From IMG/VR virus record IMGVR_UViG_3300037502_002960, positions 19,360-83,359 of that record: a stretch of DNA of 64,000 nucleotides; one strand, given 5' to 3'. Made by a program: the position numbers and the translations under genes. This DNA is from a virus. The first letter of the stretch is position 1. Each line of letters begins with the position of its first letter. The notes below the pieces were generated by a model. That model was given only the letters and a program-made list of their open reading frames with translations, had not been told where the DNA came from and made no database searches. Positions 51,150 to 59,113 of the stretch are shown piece after piece.

Positions 51150-51169
51150 TATTGTATCACTCTTTTTTT
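51143..51169 (+). terminator. rho-independent terminator
   Basis: AGAGTGATA/TATCACTCT, nine-bp perfect stem, loop TTG, then TTTTTT; overlaps the kinase stop. Confidence 0.85.
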
Positions 51170-51188
51170 ATTTTGTTTATAAAATCTG

Positions 51189-51217
51189 TTGACAATAGTT
51201 AATAATAATGATATAAT
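51189..51217 (+). promoter_or_regulatory. sigma-A promoter of the endonuclease gene
   Basis: TTGACA, 17 bp, TATAAT. Confidence 0.85.
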
Positions 51218-51264
51218 GTATTTAAGTTAAAAAGTAAAAATAAAGAAAGTGAGGTTAAACGCAA

Positions 51265-52656
51265 TTGGGAAAAAAGAAAGTAAAAATAGATTTTAATCAG
51301 AGAGTTTTTTCTATGTACGGAGAGAACCCTCCATTCTATGACAATACAGAATTTAAAGGTGTAAATGAATACATGTCTGTAAAATGTTCAAAGTGTCACA
51401 GAGAAATAAAAAACAAAGCAAGAATGTTTATTAGACCAGACAAACCTTTTAAATGCGGGTACTGTTCTGGAAAATGGAAAAATACTGAAATATTTAAAAA
51501 AGAAATTTATAATTTAGTTGGAAACAAATATACACTGATGTCTGAATATAAAGGGGCGCACGAGGTTGTTTTTATTGTTCATAATCTTTGTGGCAAAGAC
51601 TTTGAGACTACACCAAATAAATTCATAACTAAAAACAAAAGGTGCACAAGCTGTAGCGTTTCCAACGGAGAACAATTAGTAAAAGATTATTTAAATAAAA
51701 TGGAAGTTGGATACGTATATGATAGAAAATTTATAGGTAATAAAACGTGTTTATCTGAAAATGGTAGAAGTCTTAGATTTGATTTTCAAATTATAAATAA
51801 TAATGGTAATGTTTGTGGAGTCATAGAGTTTGACGGAGAACAACATAGTTCTGCAAACCATTATTTTCATGATAACGAATATAGAAATACTGATGATATA
51901 AAAAATAATTTTTGTAATAAAAATAATATTCCCATACTAAGAATAACTATATGTGAAATTTTAAAATCAAAAAATACTTTATCAACGACAGATAATATAT
52001 CTATAATTAAACTGAATGAAAAGATAGAGGGATTTATAGATGGTCTAAATGAGGACTTAGATTTAGGAAAAACTATTTTAAGCGAAAGAATAAATAGAAA
52101 AAATGAAAAAATTATAAACAAGGGGAATGATATCCTTGAAATATTAAAAGGTGAGAACTTAAACTGGAAATGGATAAAAAATTATGACAGATTATACAAA
52201 ATAAGCGACAAGGGTGATATTATTAAATTCAATTCAAAAGGAAGCCCAATTAAAAAGATGAGTAGTTTTAAAAATGGTAAATATCTTTCAGTTAATTTAA
52301 CATACAATAAAAAAACAAGTAACTATAACCTTTCAAAGTTAATATATTCTACTTTTAAAGACATTGAATATGAAAATTTGAAAGACATGTATATACAATA
52401 TAAAGACGGGAACGAAACCAACACCTCTATTGATAATCTTATATTAATATCTAGAGACGAGTGGAGTAGAAAAACTTTTAATATGAACAAAAAGGGTTGT
52501 TTCAAAATAGACCCAAAGACAAAAAACAGAACCTATTATCACCCGATATCTTCTGCCTCAAATGATGGGTATGACCCTAGTGCCATTGTAAAGTGTTGTA
52601 AAGGAAAGAATAATATGTACAAAGGATTTTACTGGGAATATGATAATTTTTACTAA
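51265..52656 (+). CDS. EDxHD/Vsr-type homing endonuclease with NUMOD4-like domain, 463 aa
   Basis: TTG start after GTGAGGTTAAACGCAA. N-terminal treble-clef fingers (CSKCHREIKNK ... CGYCSGK; CGKDFETT ... CTSCS). Residues about 130-230 form an EDxHD/Vsr-type nuclease: EQLVKDYLNKM, RFDFQIIN, GVIEFDGEQHS, DDIKNNFCNKNNIPILRI, as in I-Bth0305I. The C-terminal part holds NWKWIKNYDRLYKISDKGDI, a NUMOD4-like unit, and a further recognition repeat ending KGFYWEYDNFY. Free-standing, with its own promoter; may move itself or one of the group I introns. Confidence 0.85.
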   Translation: MGKKKVKIDFNQRVFSMYGENPPFYDNTEFKGVNEYMSVKCSKCHREIKNKARMFIRPDKPFKCGYCSGKWKNTEIFKKEIYNLVGNKYTLMSEYKGAHEVVFIVHNLCGKDFETTPNKFITKNKRCTSCSVSNGEQLVKDYLNKMEVGYVYDRKFIGNKTCLSENGRSLRFDFQIINNNGNVCGVIEFDGEQHSSANHYFHDNEYRNTDDIKNNFCNKNNIPILRITICEILKSKNTLSTTDNISIIKLNEKIEGFIDGLNEDLDLGKTILSERINRKNEKIINKGNDILEILKGENLNWKWIKNYDRLYKISDKGDIIKFNSKGSPIKKMSSFKNGKYLSVNLTYNKKTSNYNLSKLIYSTFKDIEYENLKDMYIQYKDGNETNTSIDNLILISRDEWSRKTFNMNKKGCFKIDPKTKNRTYYHPISSASNDGYDPSAIVKCCKGKNNMYKGFYWEYDNFY

Positions 52657-52725
52657 ACTCAATTTATGGGTATGTGTTATGGAGTCAAAAAGCAAAAGAA
52701 AATATTTAAAAGTTTTAAAAAACTA

Positions 52726-52754
52726 TTGACGAATATAAATAATAATGATATAAT
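52726..52754 (+). promoter_or_regulatory. sigma-A-like promoter
   Basis: TTGACG, 17 bp, TATAAT. Confidence 0.8.
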
Positions 52755-52774
52755 ATATTTATAAGTTAAAGGAG

Positions 52775-53005
52775 ATGATAAAAATAAGTACAGAAAACTT
52801 GGATAGAGTAATATTATTTAACACATTTATTGAAATATCTGAAAAAGTAAAAAGGTTAAGCTCTATAGTACAAAATGAACTTGACTTTGAAAATGAAGAC
52901 CTAGATGAATATTTTGAAGTATTTGATTATGTAATTATGGATTTAAAAGAACAAAAGAAAGAGATTCAACTATTTATTGAATCTCAAACAAATAGCAAGA
53001 AGTAA
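52775..53005 (+). CDS. small helical protein before the CRISPR locus, 76 aa
   Basis: The ATG abuts AAAGGAG, so a non-ATG start some codons later is possible (ATA at 52784). All-helical, acidic protein (SEKVKRLSSIVQNELDFENE). It is the nearest gene to the tracrRNA and could be unrelated or an accessory (for example an inhibitor or regulator). No family recognised. Confidence 0.55.
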   Translation: MIKISTENLDRVILFNTFIEISEKVKRLSSIVQNELDFENEDLDEYFEVFDYVIMDLKEQKKEIQLFIESQTNSKK

Positions 53006-53023
53006 GAAGACAGGATAAGGTGC

Positions 53024-53032
53024 TGTTATAAT
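53024..53032 (+). promoter_or_regulatory. extended -10 promoter of the tracrRNA
   Basis: TGTTATAAT is a perfect extended -10 element; no -35 box stands at the usual place. It also forms the right side and loop of a hairpin (GGTGCTGT/ACAGCACC, 53019-53040). Transcription would start at about 53039. Confidence 0.5.
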
Positions 53033-53038
53033 ACAGCA

Positions 53039-53210
53039 CCGTAACTACTCTGCGCATACTTTGGTGCGCTAAACCTAGAAGTGCCAGATAGAAACAAAAT
53101 ACATATAGTCTTTTGTTTTACGAATATAATAAATCTGGTAACACTCGGTAAGTTCCACTTTGGTTGGAACGGCTGTGTTATGAAAATAGAATATAGCAGA
53201 ATGTGCAAAA
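53039..53210 (+). ncRNA. candidate tracrRNA with anti-repeat
   Basis: Hairpins GCGCAT/GTGCGC (53052-53069) and a nested arm TAACAC/GTGTTA (53139-53144 with 53175-53180) enclosing GTTCCA/TGGAAC (53152-53170). Then comes an anti-repeat: CTGTG (53173-53177), AAATAGAAT (53184-53192) and TAGCAGAAT (53194-53202). These pair with the CRISPR repeat's CACAG, ATTCTATTT and GTTTTGCTA, about 23 bp in register with one small bulge. This is the expected architecture of Cas12f-type tracrRNA. 3-prime end not certain. Confidence 0.8.
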
Positions 53211-53352
53211 TTACTAAATTATCTTTTGAATCATAAAAATAAGTGAAATCAAAATAGCCTCTATAGAGAGGAAAAAACGACACTGGTTTACTTGTTAAAA
53301 TGATAATTTTAAGAGATTTGATGGTAGGTGTTGAAAGAATACTACTTGCGAG
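53211..53352. other. spacer between tracrRNA and array
   Basis: About 140 bp with no gene. Contains a small CCTCT/AGAGG hairpin (53262-53275) and, near 53322, GATGGTAGG complementary to the repeat's CTACCAT; a possible leader of the array. No good promoter pair seen. Confidence 0.4.
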
Positions 53353-53586
53353 GTTTTGCCACCATTATATTTAGCACAGTAACAAAGGGAAACGGAAGTT
53401 CATGAAAGCTGGAAAACGGTTTTGCTACCATTCTATTTAGCACAGTAACAAAGGTTTGATTAATACACCAATATTCATTTTCACGTTTTGCTACCACTCT
53501 ATTTAGCACGGTAGCAAAGGGCGTTGACAGAGTTGTTTAAGAATATGTTTGTTTTGCCACCATTCTATTTAACACAAGTGGTAAAA
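53353..53586 (+). CRISPR. minimal CRISPR array, four repeats and three spacers
   Basis: Repeats start at 53353, 53419, 53485 and 53551, exactly 66 bp apart: 36-nt repeats and three 30-nt spacers. The repeat consensus begins GTTTTGCTACCATTCTATTT and continues AGCACAGTAACAAAGG. Positions vary slightly (GCC/GCT, ATT/ACT, ACAG/ACGG) and the fourth repeat is degenerate at its 3-prime end (AACACAAGTGGTAAAA), as in terminal repeats. The effector start follows 59 bp on. Spacer targets were not found by reading this window, but the search was not exhaustive. Confidence 0.92.
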
Positions 53587-53644
53587 AACAAATAAAATAG
53601 CGAGTATATTAACATTAACAAAATAAAAGAGTAGAGGTATTAAC

Positions 53645-55078
53645 ATGACAACAAAAACACTTAAAATAAAGATTGTAAAACCGCTAGATACAGACTGGAA
53701 AGAATTTGGTGAAATTTTAAAAGATATTCAATATGACTCTTGGAAATTATCTAATAAAATGATTCAAGGGCTATGGGAGTTTAATAATGAAAATTTTAAA
53801 TACAAAGAAAGAACTGGTAATTACATTGACCTAAAAAAAGATAGGTTATTATTTAAAGACCTAGGCAATAGTAAAAAATATTATACAAATGTCTTGTCCG
53901 ATATAAAAAACCTCTTAAAGAAAGAAGCATACAAACTAAGTAGCAGAGGGTATCAAGCTTTAGGAAAGATGGTTAATGACTCTTGGAATATTCACTACCA
54001 AGATATCGTTAATGGAAGGGAATCAATTATCAACTTTAAAAAAAACTTACCAATTGAACTTCACAACTTACAAATGATGAACAATATAACAAAAGAGCTG
54101 ACACTTAAAAAACAAGACATTAAAGGTAAAGACTGGTACGAAATCTCGTTTAATCTAATTTCAAAAACCTATTCGAAAGAACTTGGCTACAAAAATGGAT
54201 GGTTTAGAGTTGCTCTTGATGTACGAGATAATTATCAGAAAGCTATTGTTGATAGAGTTATTAGTAAAGAGTATAAATTATCTATGAGCAAGTTAACACA
54301 AGATAAAAAAGGTAATTGGTATTTCATGATGGCTTATACGTTTGAACCAAAAAAGAAAGAATTGAATAAAGAAAGAATTATGGGAATTGATTTAGGTGTA
54401 AACATTCCTGCTGTTATTGCAATTAATGATGATAATTACTATAAGCAAAATGTTGGTAGCAGAAAAGAGATTCAAGATTTTGAAAAACAAGTCATTGCAC
54501 GTAAGAAAAGTTTACAAAATCAACGTAAACATTGTGGAGATGGCAGTATTGGTCGTGGGATTAAAACAAGGTTAAAGCCTTTAGATAAGATTGGTAATAA
54601 AATTTCAAACTTTAAAAACACTAAAAATCATTGTTGGAGTCGATATATCGTTGATGAGGCTGTTAAAAATGAGTGTGGTGTAATTCAAATGGAAGATTTA
54701 AGCGGTATCTCAGACAACAATAAGTTTTTAAAGACTTGGACGTATTATGATTTACAACAAAAAATCGCTTATAAAGCTAAAGAAGTTGGTATTGATATTA
54801 AAATGATTAAACCATCGCACACATCAGCACGTTGTAGCAAGTGTGGTCACATCCATAAAAAAGAAGACAAACCTTTATGGAGACCAACGCAAGAACAGTT
54901 TAAATGTATGAATTGTGATTATGGTCATAGACGTTTTGTTAATGCGGATTTTAACGCATCTAAAAATATAGCAACAAAAGACATTGAAAAGATTATTGAA
55001 AAGCAGTTAAAAGAACAGAAAAAGAAAGAAAACATTAATTTGAAAAAGAATTATGATTTAGTAGAAGAAAATATGTAG
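53645..55078 (+). CDS. miniature Cas12f/TnpB-like RNA-guided nuclease, 477 aa
   Basis: ATG after GTAGAGGTATTAAC. A helical and beta N-terminal half (recognition and wedge-like) is followed by a split RuvC: GIDLGVN (D249), IQMEDLSG (E350) and NADFNASKN (D435). A target-nucleic-acid-binding zinc finger sits between II and III with C397, C400, C421 and C424 (CSKC ... CMNC). All catalytic and zinc residues are present. Size and layout match Cas12f/V-U effectors and their TnpB ancestors. An adjacent regular array and anti-repeat RNA make a CRISPR effector more likely than an IS605 TnpB. It would cut DNA guided by crRNA-tracrRNA, defending against rival phages or plasmids. Confidence 0.9.
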   Translation: MTTKTLKIKIVKPLDTDWKEFGEILKDIQYDSWKLSNKMIQGLWEFNNENFKYKERTGNYIDLKKDRLLFKDLGNSKKYYTNVLSDIKNLLKKEAYKLSSRGYQALGKMVNDSWNIHYQDIVNGRESIINFKKNLPIELHNLQMMNNITKELTLKKQDIKGKDWYEISFNLISKTYSKELGYKNGWFRVALDVRDNYQKAIVDRVISKEYKLSMSKLTQDKKGNWYFMMAYTFEPKKKELNKERIMGIDLGVNIPAVIAINDDNYYKQNVGSRKEIQDFEKQVIARKKSLQNQRKHCGDGSIGRGIKTRLKPLDKIGNKISNFKNTKNHCWSRYIVDEAVKNECGVIQMEDLSGISDNNKFLKTWTYYDLQQKIAYKAKEVGIDIKMIKPSHTSARCSKCGHIHKKEDKPLWRPTQEQFKCMNCDYGHRRFVNADFNASKNIATKDIEKIIEKQLKEQKKKENINLKKNYDLVEENM

Positions 55079-55102
55079 TTAAAAATTAGGAGGAGTTTTT
55101 TT

Positions 55103-55423
55103 ATGGGAAAAGTAGTAGTTAGTATTTATCACACATATGGCAAAGGTGACGGAGAAGAGTTGTCTGACAGATATATTATTAATAATACAAAAGAAGAGCG
55201 TGAAGGTATTTTTGAAACTTTTGGTTATGATGAAGCTGTAGACAATAAAAAAGATTTCATTAATGGTAAAATTGACCAATTCAGTTTTGATAAGTTTGGT
55301 GGGGATTGGGATGAACCAACAGGTGGATATATTTTAATTGATACAAAAGAAGAACTTGTTTCTCAAGCAGAGAATAACTATAAAAAAGAATTAGCTAAAA
55401 TTGATGAGTTATTTTCTCGTTAA
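55103..55423 (+). CDS. unknown protein, 106 aa
   Basis: ATG after TTAGGAGGAGTTTTTTT, 24 bp from the effector stop, so probably co-transcribed. Alpha/beta protein (GKVVVSIYHTYGKGDGEELS). No family recognised. Its closeness to the nuclease makes an accessory role possible but not shown. Confidence 0.6.
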   Translation: MGKVVVSIYHTYGKGDGEELSDRYIINNTKEEREGIFETFGYDEAVDNKKDFINGKIDQFSFDKFGGDWDEPTGGYILIDTKEELVSQAENNYKKELAKIDELFSR

Positions 55424-55443
55424 ATTTAGACAGGAGGGAAAGT

Positions 55444-55899
55444 ATGTTAAAATTTTGTGTGGAACAATGGGATAAAAACAAGAATTTATTAAGAGATGAT
55501 ATTGAGTTTGACAAAGAATTTTACAAATATTGTTATTATAAAGACCTTGTTTCTAAAATTGTTGAAATTATTTTTAATACAGATAATGAAAAAAAGTGTG
55601 ACATTGAAAATATCACATGTGTTGATAACGGTGACTATCAAGGTGTTCAACTGTTTTTAATACCAAGGGATTGTTATCAACCGACCGAAACAGAATATTT
55701 AATGACATATGTTAATTATGGTTCATGTAGTGGATGTGACACTCTATTGTATGCTCAAAGCAGTGATGATACACTTGTTAATGATATTATGACACTATCA
55801 TTACATATTGTACAAAACACAACGAAACCATATAAGGGCGGATGGGGATATTATAATTTTGAAAATGTGGAGGTTGATAAAGATTATGGGAAAAACTAA
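55444..55899 (+). CDS. unknown protein, 151 aa
   Basis: ATG after CAGGAGGGAAAGT. Contains IPRDCYQPTETEYLMTYVNY and GSCSGCDTLLYAQSSDDT, a pattern seen in other hypothetical phage proteins but which I cannot name. Overlaps the next gene. Confidence 0.6.
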   Translation: MLKFCVEQWDKNKNLLRDDIEFDKEFYKYCYYKDLVSKIVEIIFNTDNEKKCDIENITCVDNGDYQGVQLFLIPRDCYQPTETEYLMTYVNYGSCSGCDTLLYAQSSDDTLVNDIMTLSLHIVQNTTKPYKGGWGYYNFENVEVDKDYGKN

Positions 55900-56374
55900 G
55901 GTTGTTATCAAAGAAGTTGGGTTTAAATTTTCACCCAGTGTTTATGATAAAGCTAATGTAGGTTTAAGCGCAGGCTATAATGTAAAATTGACTGAATCTA
56001 TGTACGTCTACGATGCTGTTTTTATGAATATTGATGCAGATACTGTTTCTGTTGGAAGTAAAATTAATTACGGTGAAAAATATTATATTGTTGAAAGTGT
56101 AGAAACTTTACATATAGTTGGAGATGAATTAGAGCAAGATGTAAAAAAAGTAATTAATGTAAGACCAGAAAAAGATAATCTAGAAAATAAGGAAACAACT
56201 ATCTCTTATAGCAGTTTGATTGAATTTGAAAAAGAGCTGAAAAAACAACTTGAAGACAAACAATATGAATATTTAATTGCAAAAGAAAAAATTCGTGAAC
56301 TAGACTGTAAACTAGGAGCATATAAAAATAAACACAAAAAACTTAAAAAACTACTGTTTTTCTGGAAAAGGTAA
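55886..56374 (+). CDS. unknown protein with C-terminal coiled coil, 162 aa
   Basis: The ATG at 55886 follows TGGAGGTTGATAAAGATT and overlaps the preceding stop by 14 bp. A beta-rich N-terminal half, then a coiled coil (residues 110-155, FEKELKKQLEDKQYEYLIAK) and basic tail. Function unknown. Confidence 0.55.
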   Translation: MGKTKVVIKEVGFKFSPSVYDKANVGLSAGYNVKLTESMYVYDAVFMNIDADTVSVGSKINYGEKYYIVESVETLHIVGDELEQDVKKVINVRPEKDNLENKETTISYSSLIEFEKELKKQLEDKQYEYLIAKEKIRELDCKLGAYKNKHKKLKKLLFFWKR

Positions 56375-56393
56375 AAATAAAGGAGGGTCGATA

Positions 56394-56705
56394 ATGGACG
56401 TAATTAAAAGAATAGATATCAAAGAGTTTCGAGAAAAAGGGTATCTACAAGAAATTAATAGACAATTTTTACACCCCTTGGGATTAGCTTTAGAGATTAT
56501 TTTTGATGAAGATGGTGTAGAGCATTTGGGTGGTATATGGGATTATCGTGAAGACCCAGAAGGCATTTATTTTTCTGAAGAAATTGTTAAATTAGATAGA
56601 TTTAGTGATTCCATAGAGTTTATCGAAAACGAAAAGAAAAAGAGGGAAAATGAGAGAATTAAAAAATTTGGCAGTGTAATACAAACCCCTGGTAAAAAAG
56701 ACTGA
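56394..56705 (+). CDS. unknown protein, 103 aa
   Basis: ATG after AAAGGAGGGTCGATA. Contains PLGLALEIIFDEDGVEHLGG, a short segment common in hypothetical proteins of Gram-positive phages. Basic C-terminus. Function unknown. Confidence 0.6.
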   Translation: MDVIKRIDIKEFREKGYLQEINRQFLHPLGLALEIIFDEDGVEHLGGIWDYREDPEGIYFSEEIVKLDRFSDSIEFIENEKKKRENERIKKFGSVIQTPGKKD

Positions 56706-56760
56706 TTTTTATAGTTTTAAGAATCCCCTCTATAGAGCATAAAAAAGGGTACTAAAAAAC

Positions 56761-56831
56761 TTGATAAAAGAATAGTTTTATCAACAACAAATCTAAAAAT
56801 AAGGTATATATAAAAATATGCCTTATTTTTC
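56761..56831 (+). terminator. two hairpins, the second a rho-independent terminator
   Basis: TTGATAAAA/TTTTATCAA (56761-56784), then AATAAGG-ATAT/ATAT-CCTTATT (about 56798-56826) followed by TTTTTCT. A promoter lies 20 bp on. Confidence 0.75.
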
Positions 56832-56850
56832 TATTTAGGCATATTTACCC

Positions 56851-56879
56851 TTGACAAAAATCAATAATAATAGTATAAT
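56851..56879 (+). promoter_or_regulatory. sigma-A promoter of the replication unit
   Basis: TTGACA, 17 bp, TATAAT. Confidence 0.85.
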
Positions 56880-56909
56880 TATATTATGATACAAAAAGGA
56901 GGAGAAAAA

Positions 56910-57516: not shown

Positions 57517-59049
57517 TTGGCAAAAGATAAAACAGATGAGCTTATTAAGAAACAGGTAGAAGAAATTAACAAAACTGCCGAGGTAAACGAATCATATTTG
57601 ATTGGCTTATTGTGGTCAGACCCATTTGAAAACTATACAGAATATAGTGAAGTCCTAAACCAAGATGAATTTATCCATGATGTATGGGGATTCTTTTTTG
57701 AATTTGGTCGAAGAATGTTTAAAGATGGTGTTAATAAATTTGATGAAATTACTGTAAAAATGAAGTTAAAAGAGTATAATATTGAAGAAGAATTTAATAG
57801 CTATAACGGTTTCAGCACAATTCATGATGTAGTAGATATTGTACAGCACTATAAAGATAATATTGAATACTATTATGAAACAGTAAAAAAGAATTATGTT
57901 GTTAGACAGCTTTTTCTTCTCTTTGGAAAAAAGGTTTTACTTGCATCTGGTAAGTATGACTGGAAAAAGATGAATCGTGAACAGTTGGTTAAATATTGGA
58001 ATGATAAACTTAATAACATATCTATGAACAATGTTTCTACATATGATATCGAAAACCTTTATATTGAGGCTGATGAGTTTATTGAAAGGCTAGAAAAAGA
58101 TGCGTCTGATATGCTACCATACTACAACAGTAAACTATTAAATACAATCTCTCAAGGTACACCACGTGGACACGTAACAATGATTGGCGGTTTTGGGGGT
58201 AGTGGTAAATCAAGTATCACGGCATCTAAATTTATTATGTCTTGTATAGAAAATAAAGAGAGAACAATTGTTGTCTTAAATGAGGAAGATGCGCAGGCTT
58301 TTAGACAGAAAATTGTTTTAACAATACTTTACTATGAGTTCTCTACTGGTATTGACAGAAAAAGAATGGTCAATGGTAGTTTAGACGAAAAAGATAAAGT
58401 AAAAATCAGACATGCATTTAAACGCATGAAAGAGCTTATGGATGGTGAAGATGCCTTAATCAAGGTTTTATTTATGGAAAGATATGTAATGAAAGACCTT
58501 GAGAAAATTGTAAGATTTTGGGCTAATAGAGGTTATGATAATTTGCTTATCGATACGCACAAGCCATCAGATGATTCAGAGCATGATTCCAGATGGGAGA
58601 CATTTACGGAAGATATGAAAACAATTTATCGATGGACACGTAAGAATGCGGGAGGTATGAACCTTAGAACAGTGGTGACATTCCAGTTAGCTGATACCGC
58701 TGTCAGATACAGATATTTAGATTTTGAGGCTATTGGTGAGGGTAAAAAAGCTAAGAACGAGGCTTCAATCATGTATATGTTTAGAACAGCTTGGGCTGAT
58801 GAATATGAGGGTGGTAAAAGAGAGCTTGACTGTTATACTCTCAAAAAGATGCCTAATGGGGAATATGGTAAAGTACCTTTTAAGCTAGAAAGTGGTAAAA
58901 CATACTATCTTTGGTTTACACCTAAAAACAGGTTTGGGCAAGCAAATGATACAGGGTTACCAGTATTAATTGTAGAGCCAATGTTTAATGCTAACGTGTT
59001 TAAAGAAATAGGTTGGTGTTATGTAGCAAATGATAAATCTGGTAGATAA
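57517..59049 (+). CDS. DnaB-type replicative helicase, 510 aa
   Basis: TTG start after GAGAGGTAGATTTTA. N-terminal helical domain, linker, then a RecA-like motor (from residue about 200): TMIGGFGGSGKSSI (Walker A), TIVVLNEEDAQAF (H1a-like Glu), NLLIDTHKPSD (Walker B) and VTFQLADTA (motif III-like). It is the main fork helicase, flanked by the primase gene. Confidence 0.88.
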   Translation: MAKDKTDELIKKQVEEINKTAEVNESYLIGLLWSDPFENYTEYSEVLNQDEFIHDVWGFFFEFGRRMFKDGVNKFDEITVKMKLKEYNIEEEFNSYNGFSTIHDVVDIVQHYKDNIEYYYETVKKNYVVRQLFLLFGKKVLLASGKYDWKKMNREQLVKYWNDKLNNISMNNVSTYDIENLYIEADEFIERLEKDASDMLPYYNSKLLNTISQGTPRGHVTMIGGFGGSGKSSITASKFIMSCIENKERTIVVLNEEDAQAFRQKIVLTILYYEFSTGIDRKRMVNGSLDEKDKVKIRHAFKRMKELMDGEDALIKVLFMERYVMKDLEKIVRFWANRGYDNLLIDTHKPSDDSEHDSRWETFTEDMKTIYRWTRKNAGGMNLRTVVTFQLADTAVRYRYLDFEAIGEGKKAKNEASIMYMFRTAWADEYEGGKRELDCYTLKKMPNGEYGKVPFKLESGKTYYLWFTPKNRFGQANDTGLPVLIVEPMFNANVFKEIGWCYVANDKSGR

Positions 59050-59053
59050 TCTA

Positions 59054-59082
59054 TTGACTAATGTAAAAAATAATGGTATAAT
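59054..59082 (+). promoter_or_regulatory. sigma-A promoter of the primase gene
   Basis: TTGACT, 17 bp, TATAAT, extended by TGG. Confidence 0.8.
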
Positions 59083-59113
59083 GTATTTATCATGTTGTTG
59101 AGAAGGTGTGATA

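What the first reader, a model, noticed from the sequence alone, without database searches (positions are those of the whole stretch)
53173..53202. Anti-repeat pairs with the CRISPR repeat over about 23 bp
CTGTG, AAATAGAAT and TAGCAGAAT line up in order with repeat segments CACAG, ATTCTATTT and GTTTTGCTA, leaving one small bulge and one unpaired stretch. Such a long in-register complement in a non-coding stretch just upstream of the array is unlikely by chance in this setting.
Basis: seen in the sequence. Interest (0 to 1): 0.85.

Follow-up and report, generated by a model that had tools for sequence, protein, structure and literature searches.

The report
Phage CRISPR-Cas12f1 tracrRNA anti-repeat
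The stretch is the part of a helper RNA (tracrRNA) that pairs with the CRISPR repeats of a miniature CRISPR-Cas12f1 system carried by a Bacillus-type phage; the pairing is real and conserved across relatives, and the system is a new member of an already known kind.

Summary
Confirmed. Positions 53172-53202 pair with the CRISPR repeat over 26 bp (9+8+9; 22 Watson-Crick, 4 G-U). This is the strongest repeat-pairing site in the 64-kb window outside the array, and no shuffle reached its energy. In 21 homologous loci the anti-repeat fits its own repeat far better than swapped repeats (mean -19.6 vs -14.7 +/- 0.7 kcal/mol; 0 of 20,000 permutations), and this also holds without the window. A covariance model of the relatives' tracrRNA core, built without the window, finds the core directly upstream at 53047-53155.

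The anti-repeat belongs to a compact CRISPR locus: tracrRNA, a four-repeat array (53353-53586) and a 477-aa effector (53645-55078). By profiles, sequence, predicted fold and tree the effector is Cas12f1 (type V-F1/V-U3, AsCas12f1-like), with an intact RuvC triad. No Cas1 or Y1 transposase is found in the 83-kb record. The locus lies in a ~5.7-kb insertion in a phage related to Bacillus phage vB_BcoS-136. Virus-borne V-F1/V-U3 systems are published, so this is a new member of a known kind.

Odd and unexplained: the repeat is 36-37 nt (29-33 in most relatives) and leaves 8-9 unpaired nt before the spacer (3-5 in relatives). No protospacer was found.

The parts
52726..52754 (+). sigma-70-like promoter (TTGACG-17-TATAAT, extended -10), likely drives a 76-aa ORF and the tracr region
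   Evidence: consensus match 11/12; role inferred
52775..53005 (+). small ORF (about 76 aa) between promoter and tracr region; function unknown
   Evidence: read from sequence
53020..53039 (+). 5' hairpin GTGCTGT/ACAGCAC at the likely start of the tracrRNA
   Evidence: fold; tracr start inferred
53047..53155 (+). conserved type V-F1 tracrRNA core (hairpin GCGCAU/GUGCGC, AGAAGUG...AACACUCGGUAAG stem)
   Evidence: model R1 built without the window: 21.9 bits, E=0.0017, next best 12.7 bits; covariation in relatives
53152..53170 (+). single tracr hairpin GUUCCA/UGGAAC between core and anti-repeat (many relatives have two hairpins here)
53172..53202 (+). anti-repeat: pairs with the CRISPR repeat over 26 bp
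53353..53388 (+). CRISPR repeat 1
53389..53418 (+). spacer 1 (30 nt; 35 nt if the repeat ends at TAAC)
53419..53454 (+). CRISPR repeat 2
53455..53484 (+). spacer 2
53485..53520 (+). CRISPR repeat 3 (folds end to end on itself)
53521..53550 (+). spacer 3
53551..53586 (+). CRISPR repeat 4 (terminal, 3' end diverged; also folds end to end)
53645..55078 (+). Cas12f1 (type V-F1/V-U3) effector, 477 aa; RuvC D249/E350/D435, zinc-ribbon C397/C400/C421/C424

Best explanation
The stretch is the anti-repeat (3' part) of the tracrRNA of a phage-borne type V-F1 CRISPR-Cas12f1 locus. Shown by sequence: a conserved V-F1 tracr core, an anti-repeat complementary to the local repeats, a four-repeat array, and a Cas12f1 effector with intact catalytic residues, all on one strand in this order. 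Inferred from studied V-F1 members: tracrRNA and array are transcribed, the anti-repeat hybridises with each repeat, the duplex is loaded into a Cas12f1 dimer, and each of the three spacers guides PAM-dependent dsDNA cleavage. With no Cas1 in the 83-kb record and no match of the spacers in the host phage itself, the likeliest use is interference against competing phages or plasmids in the same Bacillaceae-type host, with a fixed or host-assisted spacer set. The target is not shown.
For: Anti-repeat pairing beats shuffles and co-varies with the repeat over 21 loci. Independent tracr model hit just upstream, with covarying helices in relatives. Effector: PADLOC Cas12u3 3.4e-119 and Cas12f 6.3e-118; AsCas12f1 4.7e-80 in PDB sequences; predicted fold pLDDT 87.7, best PDB matches all AsCas12f1, TM 0.86 by target length, TnpB far weaker. 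Catalytic D249 and E350 and the zinc-ribbon cysteines are invariant over 33 relatives, D435 nearly so. Nearest relatives are other viral contigs with the same tracr-array-effector order. V-U3 effectors interfere with plasmids in E. coli (PMC7229846), and AsCas12f1 needs both anti-repeat duplexes (PMC11246509).
Against: No expression data. No protospacer found for any spacer. The repeats have drifted from one another, and the repeat's spacer-proximal end is longer than in relatives, so some loss of activity is possible.
Confidence: 0.9

Rival explanations
1. The locus is a decayed CRISPR-Cas12f1 remnant: the tracr and repeats are recognisable but the array is no longer active because the repeats have drifted and the guide start is displaced.
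For: Repeats differ from one another by 2 or more changes, the terminal one by more, and the repeat end is 5-6 nt longer than in relatives. No target found.
Against: The effector reading frame is intact with all catalytic and zinc residues. All four repeats still pair with the anti-repeat. The spacing is exactly 66 nt, and the pairing is one of the strongest in the family.
Confidence: 0.2
2. The effector is a transposon TnpB and the upstream RNA an omega-RNA, with the repeats unrelated to guiding.
For: NCBIfam TnpB subfamily model matches (8.5e-45); TnpB is the ancestor of Cas12f.
Against: No Y1 transposase in the record. Cas12f/Cas12u3 models score far higher than TnpB models, and the best fold matches are Cas12f1, with TnpB 27 orders of magnitude weaker in E-value. 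A separate array and a split tracr are present and conserved in relatives.
Confidence: 0.02
3. The complementarity is a chance match in an A+T-rich intergenic stretch.
For: One unrelated place in the 64-kb window reaches -25.4 kcal/mol.
Against: 0/300 and 0/5000 shuffles. It occupies the homologous position directly 3' of an independently detected tracr core. The cognate-pair permutation test is 0/20,000.
Confidence: 0.01

Closest known systems
AsCas12f1 (Acidibacillus sulfuroxidans; type V-F1/V-U3)
   Same: Effector 36-37% identical over the full length, same fold, same catalytic and zinc-ribbon positions; tracr core CGAGAAGUG...CUCGGUAAGG; anti-repeat 3' of the core.
   Different: 477 vs 422 aa; repeat 36-37 vs 29 nt; one hairpin fewer between tracr core and anti-repeat; anti-repeat pairs over nearly the whole repeat; located in a phage.
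Virus-borne V-F1/V-U3 loci (IMG/VR L001, L006, L008; Alicyclobacillus phage MMB025, L004)
   Same: Phage genome, Cas12f1 effector (L001 55-57%, L006 53% identity), array and tracr upstream of the gene; grouped with the window in the tree, support 97/94.
   Different: Repeats of 29-32 nt in L001 and L006; unrelated repeat sequences and spacers.
OsCas12f1 / RhCas12f1 (PMC13186708, PMC10090079)
   Same: Short V-F1 guide scaffolds with four stem loops rather than the five of AsCas12f (PMC13186708), so hairpin number varies naturally.
   Different: Effector more distant (28% identity in the structural match to OsCas12f).
TnpB / IS200-IS605 OMEGA systems
   Same: Homologous RuvC and zinc-ribbon half.
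   Different: No TnpA in the record, a separate array, split tracrRNA and crRNA.

Membership tests
Type V-F1 (Cas12f1, V-U3) CRISPR-Cas | Cas12f1-like effector of 400-600 aa | tested here: met
   477 aa; PADLOC Cas12u3 3.4e-119; PDB AsCas12f1 4.7e-80; fold TM 0.86 by target length
Type V-F1 (Cas12f1, V-U3) CRISPR-Cas | RuvC D-E-D triad and C4 zinc ribbon | tested here: met
   D249, E350 and C397, C400, C421, C424 invariant over 33 sequences, D435 nearly invariant
Type V-F1 (Cas12f1, V-U3) CRISPR-Cas | Adjacent CRISPR array | tested here: met
   Four repeats, 66-nt unit, 60 nt upstream of the gene
Type V-F1 (Cas12f1, V-U3) CRISPR-Cas | tracrRNA with family core | tested here: met
   Model built without the window: E=0.0017 at 53047-53155
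Type V-F1 (Cas12f1, V-U3) CRISPR-Cas | Long repeat/anti-repeat duplex | tested here: met
   26 bp
Type V-F1 (Cas12f1, V-U3) CRISPR-Cas | Short repeat/anti-repeat duplex ending 3-5 nt before the spacer | tested here: inconclusive
   Relatives leave 3-5 nt; here 8-9 nt follow the last pair. The alternative loop pairing CUUUG:CAAAG has no family-level support
Type V-F1 (Cas12f1, V-U3) CRISPR-Cas | PAM-dependent dsDNA cleavage by a dimer | not testable with these tools
   Needs biochemistry; no protospacer found to infer a PAM
TnpB / OMEGA | Neighbouring Y1 transposase TnpA (autonomous elements) | tested here: not met
   No PF01797 match in the record
TnpB / OMEGA | Single omega-RNA with the guide at the element's right end | tested here: not met
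   The only tracr-core match is upstream, split from a repeat-spacer array

The most novel reading that the evidence does not exclude
This phage uses an altered Cas12f1 guide layout: either the repeat carries 5-6 extra nucleotides between the anti-repeat duplex and the guide, held by another RNA contact, or every guide starts with the same five letters (AAAGG), so that the seed is partly constant. Either would be a natural V-F1 guide-RNA variant not described for this family in the papers read here.
Probability: 0.15. Interest if true: 0.5.

Novelty: new member of a known kind. Interest (0 to 1): 0.33.

Why it matters
It adds a compact Cas12f1 locus in a vB_BcoS-136-like phage, 55-58% identical at best to the relatives found here, to the known virus-borne V-F1 set. 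It gives a natural tracrRNA with fewer hairpins and a very long anti-repeat, useful for asking what a Cas12f1 guide scaffold really needs. The cognate-pair test and the tracr model show how anti-repeats can be verified across loci without expression data.

Tried and rejected
Rfam: no family for this RNA, so a model was built instead. Single-sequence scan of genome contigs found nothing; an alignment query did. Protospacers: exact 21-mers of all three spacers in IMG/VR, blastn in phages, own record, five genomes of loci (chance-level hits only) and 194 genomes of one family around the Neobacillus locus L028: none. The Bacillus phage hits (E=6) run across the spacer-repeat border and were judged chance. 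The repeat pattern is in no other viral contig, so the repeat boundary could not be settled with a close relative. A short anti-repeat in the hairpin loop (CUUUG 53158-53162 with CAAAG at the repeat end) fits by eye, but loop-to-repeat-end pairing is no better for cognate than for swapped pairs across 14 loci (p about 0.36). End-to-end folding of repeats is strong in repeats 3 and 4 but not in 1 and 2, and only weakly a family trait, so it was not made part of the explanation. Targets of relatives' spacers: one weak hit (L001 spacer, E=0.01, Acinetobacter phages) and none; not used.

Full report
Observation. The stretch 53172-53202 reads GCTGTGTTATGAAAATAGAATATAGCAGAAT. It pairs with repeat copy 2 in three in-register helices of 9, 8 and 9 bp, with a 4-nt bulge on the tracr side and a 1 x 2 internal loop, 26 bp in all. 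The duplex energy is -26.7 kcal/mol, against -17.7 +/- 2.3 for shuffled repeats and -17.3 +/- 2.3 for shuffled intergenic DNA, 0 of 300 each. It is the best site in the 64-kb window on either strand outside the array, but the next chance site reaches -25.4, so energy alone would not settle it. Against the 130 nt just 3' of the tracr core, 0 of 5000 shuffled repeats match the observed value.

Surroundings. The window is part of an 83,359-bp IMG/VR virus record. The array has four repeats at 53353, 53419, 53485 and 53551 with an exact 66-nt period. Sixty nt downstream begins a 477-aa ORF. It matches PADLOC Cas12u3 (3.4e-119) and Cas12f (6.3e-118) far better than TnpB models, and AsCas12f1 among solved structures (4.7e-80). 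AlphaFold gives mean pLDDT 87.7, and Foldseek places all AsCas12f1 structures first (TM 0.86 by target length), TnpB far below. D249, E350 and four zinc-ribbon cysteines are invariant among 33 relatives and D435 nearly so. No Cas1 and no Y1 transposase are in the record.

Homologous loci. Loci with relatives of the effector came from IMG/VR and GTDB genomes, plus two phage records. Most have a CRISPR array next to the gene, with repeats mostly of 29-33 nt and units of 64-69 nt, and a clearly homologous tracr core: hairpin, UCGAGAAGUG, variable stem, AACACUCGAUAAGGUA, one or two hairpins, then the anti-repeat. The first hairpin and the CGAG/CUCG helix covary (97.6% of cells paired; 5 of 10 pairs with changes on both sides; covariation score 0.325 against 0.144 for shuffles, 0/500). 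A covariance model built from 21 relatives without the window finds 53047-53155 (+) with 21.9 bits, E=0.0017, the next hit in the window being 12.7 bits. The anti-repeat starts 17 nt 3' of that match, where relatives have theirs.

Coevolution test. Duplex energies were computed for every repeat against every tracr tail in 21 loci. Own pairs average -19.6, permuted pairs -14.7 +/- 0.68, and none of 20,000 permutations is as low. Without the window the result holds (-19.1 against -15.0 +/- 0.66, none). The window's own pair has the largest z score of all (-5.5). Loci are not phylogenetically independent, so this is not an exact probability, but the repeats differ so much in sequence that shared descent of a fixed sequence cannot explain it.

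What it does. In studied V-F systems the crRNA pairs with the tracrRNA through a long and a short repeat/anti-repeat stem, and scrambling either abolishes AsCas12f1 targeting (PMC11246509). V-U3 effectors cleave dsDNA next to a 5' T- or C-rich PAM, and several protect E. coli from plasmids (PMC7229846). By homology this RNA does the same. Expression, cleavage and target are inferred, not shown.

Genomic setting. The helicase 3 kb downstream is 70% identical to that of Bacillus phage vB_BcoS-136. There, and in Bacillus phage PJN02, the nucleotide-kinase gene and the gene before the helicase are about 80-105 nt apart. Here the same two genes (50% and 55% identity to vB_BcoS-136) are separated by about 5.7 kb holding an HNH/NUMOD4 endonuclease, a small ORF, the CRISPR locus and four small ORFs. 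The locus is therefore most likely an insertion in this phage lineage. In the effector tree the window groups with viral contigs L001, L006 and L008 (97/94 and 100/99), while viral and bacterial members are otherwise interleaved, consistent with repeated exchange.

What is unusual. Relatives whose pairing is clear leave 3-5 nt between the last repeat-anti-repeat pair and the spacer. Here the last 8-9 nt of the repeat, (T)AACAAAGG, are unpaired. If the repeat ended at TAAC, its length (31), spacer length (35) and end motif would all be family-like, but all three spacers would then start with AAAGG, which is not expected by chance (about 3e-6 from base composition). A pairing of CAAAG with a hairpin loop (CUUUG) is possible but has no support across the family. 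Repeats 3 and 4 fold end to end. One hairpin between core and anti-repeat is missing compared with AsCas12f1; published V-F scaffolds also differ in stem number (PMC13186708).

Known or new. Virus-borne effectors close to V-F1/V-U3, without adaptation genes, are published (PMC12607003), and an annotated Alicyclobacillus phage has one. This locus is a new member of a known kind with a small unexplained deviation in its guide RNA.

Noticed in passing
51150-56880: About 5.7-kb insertion between the nucleotide-kinase gene and the helicase-upstream gene, absent from Bacillus phages vB_BcoS-136 and PJN02; it carries the CRISPR locus, an HNH/NUMOD4 homing-type endonuclease (51265-52656) and several small ORFs.
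   Followed up: partly
53380-53388, 53446-53454, 53512-53520: The repeat ends share (T)AACAAAGG (TAGCAAAGG in copy 3) beyond the anti-repeat-paired part; whether AAAGG is repeat or constant guide start is unresolved.
   Followed up: partly
51175-51224, 52712-52761, 59040-59089: Three copies of a 50-nt promoter-like box (TTGAC...TATAAT) upstream of different genes, one of them upstream of the small ORF and tracr region.
   Followed up: no
L004 3280-3960: Alicyclobacillus phage MMB025 carries two tracr-like copies and a short degenerate array beside its Cas12f1 gene, annotated as transposase.
   Followed up: no
L028 3400-4000: Neobacillus locus with two different tracr-like and repeat blocks upstream of one Cas12f1 gene whose matched range holds an in-frame stop.
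   Followed up: no
L005 5240-5373: Fecal phage contig MT835745 has the tracr core downstream of its Cas12f1 gene and ends before any array.
   Followed up: no
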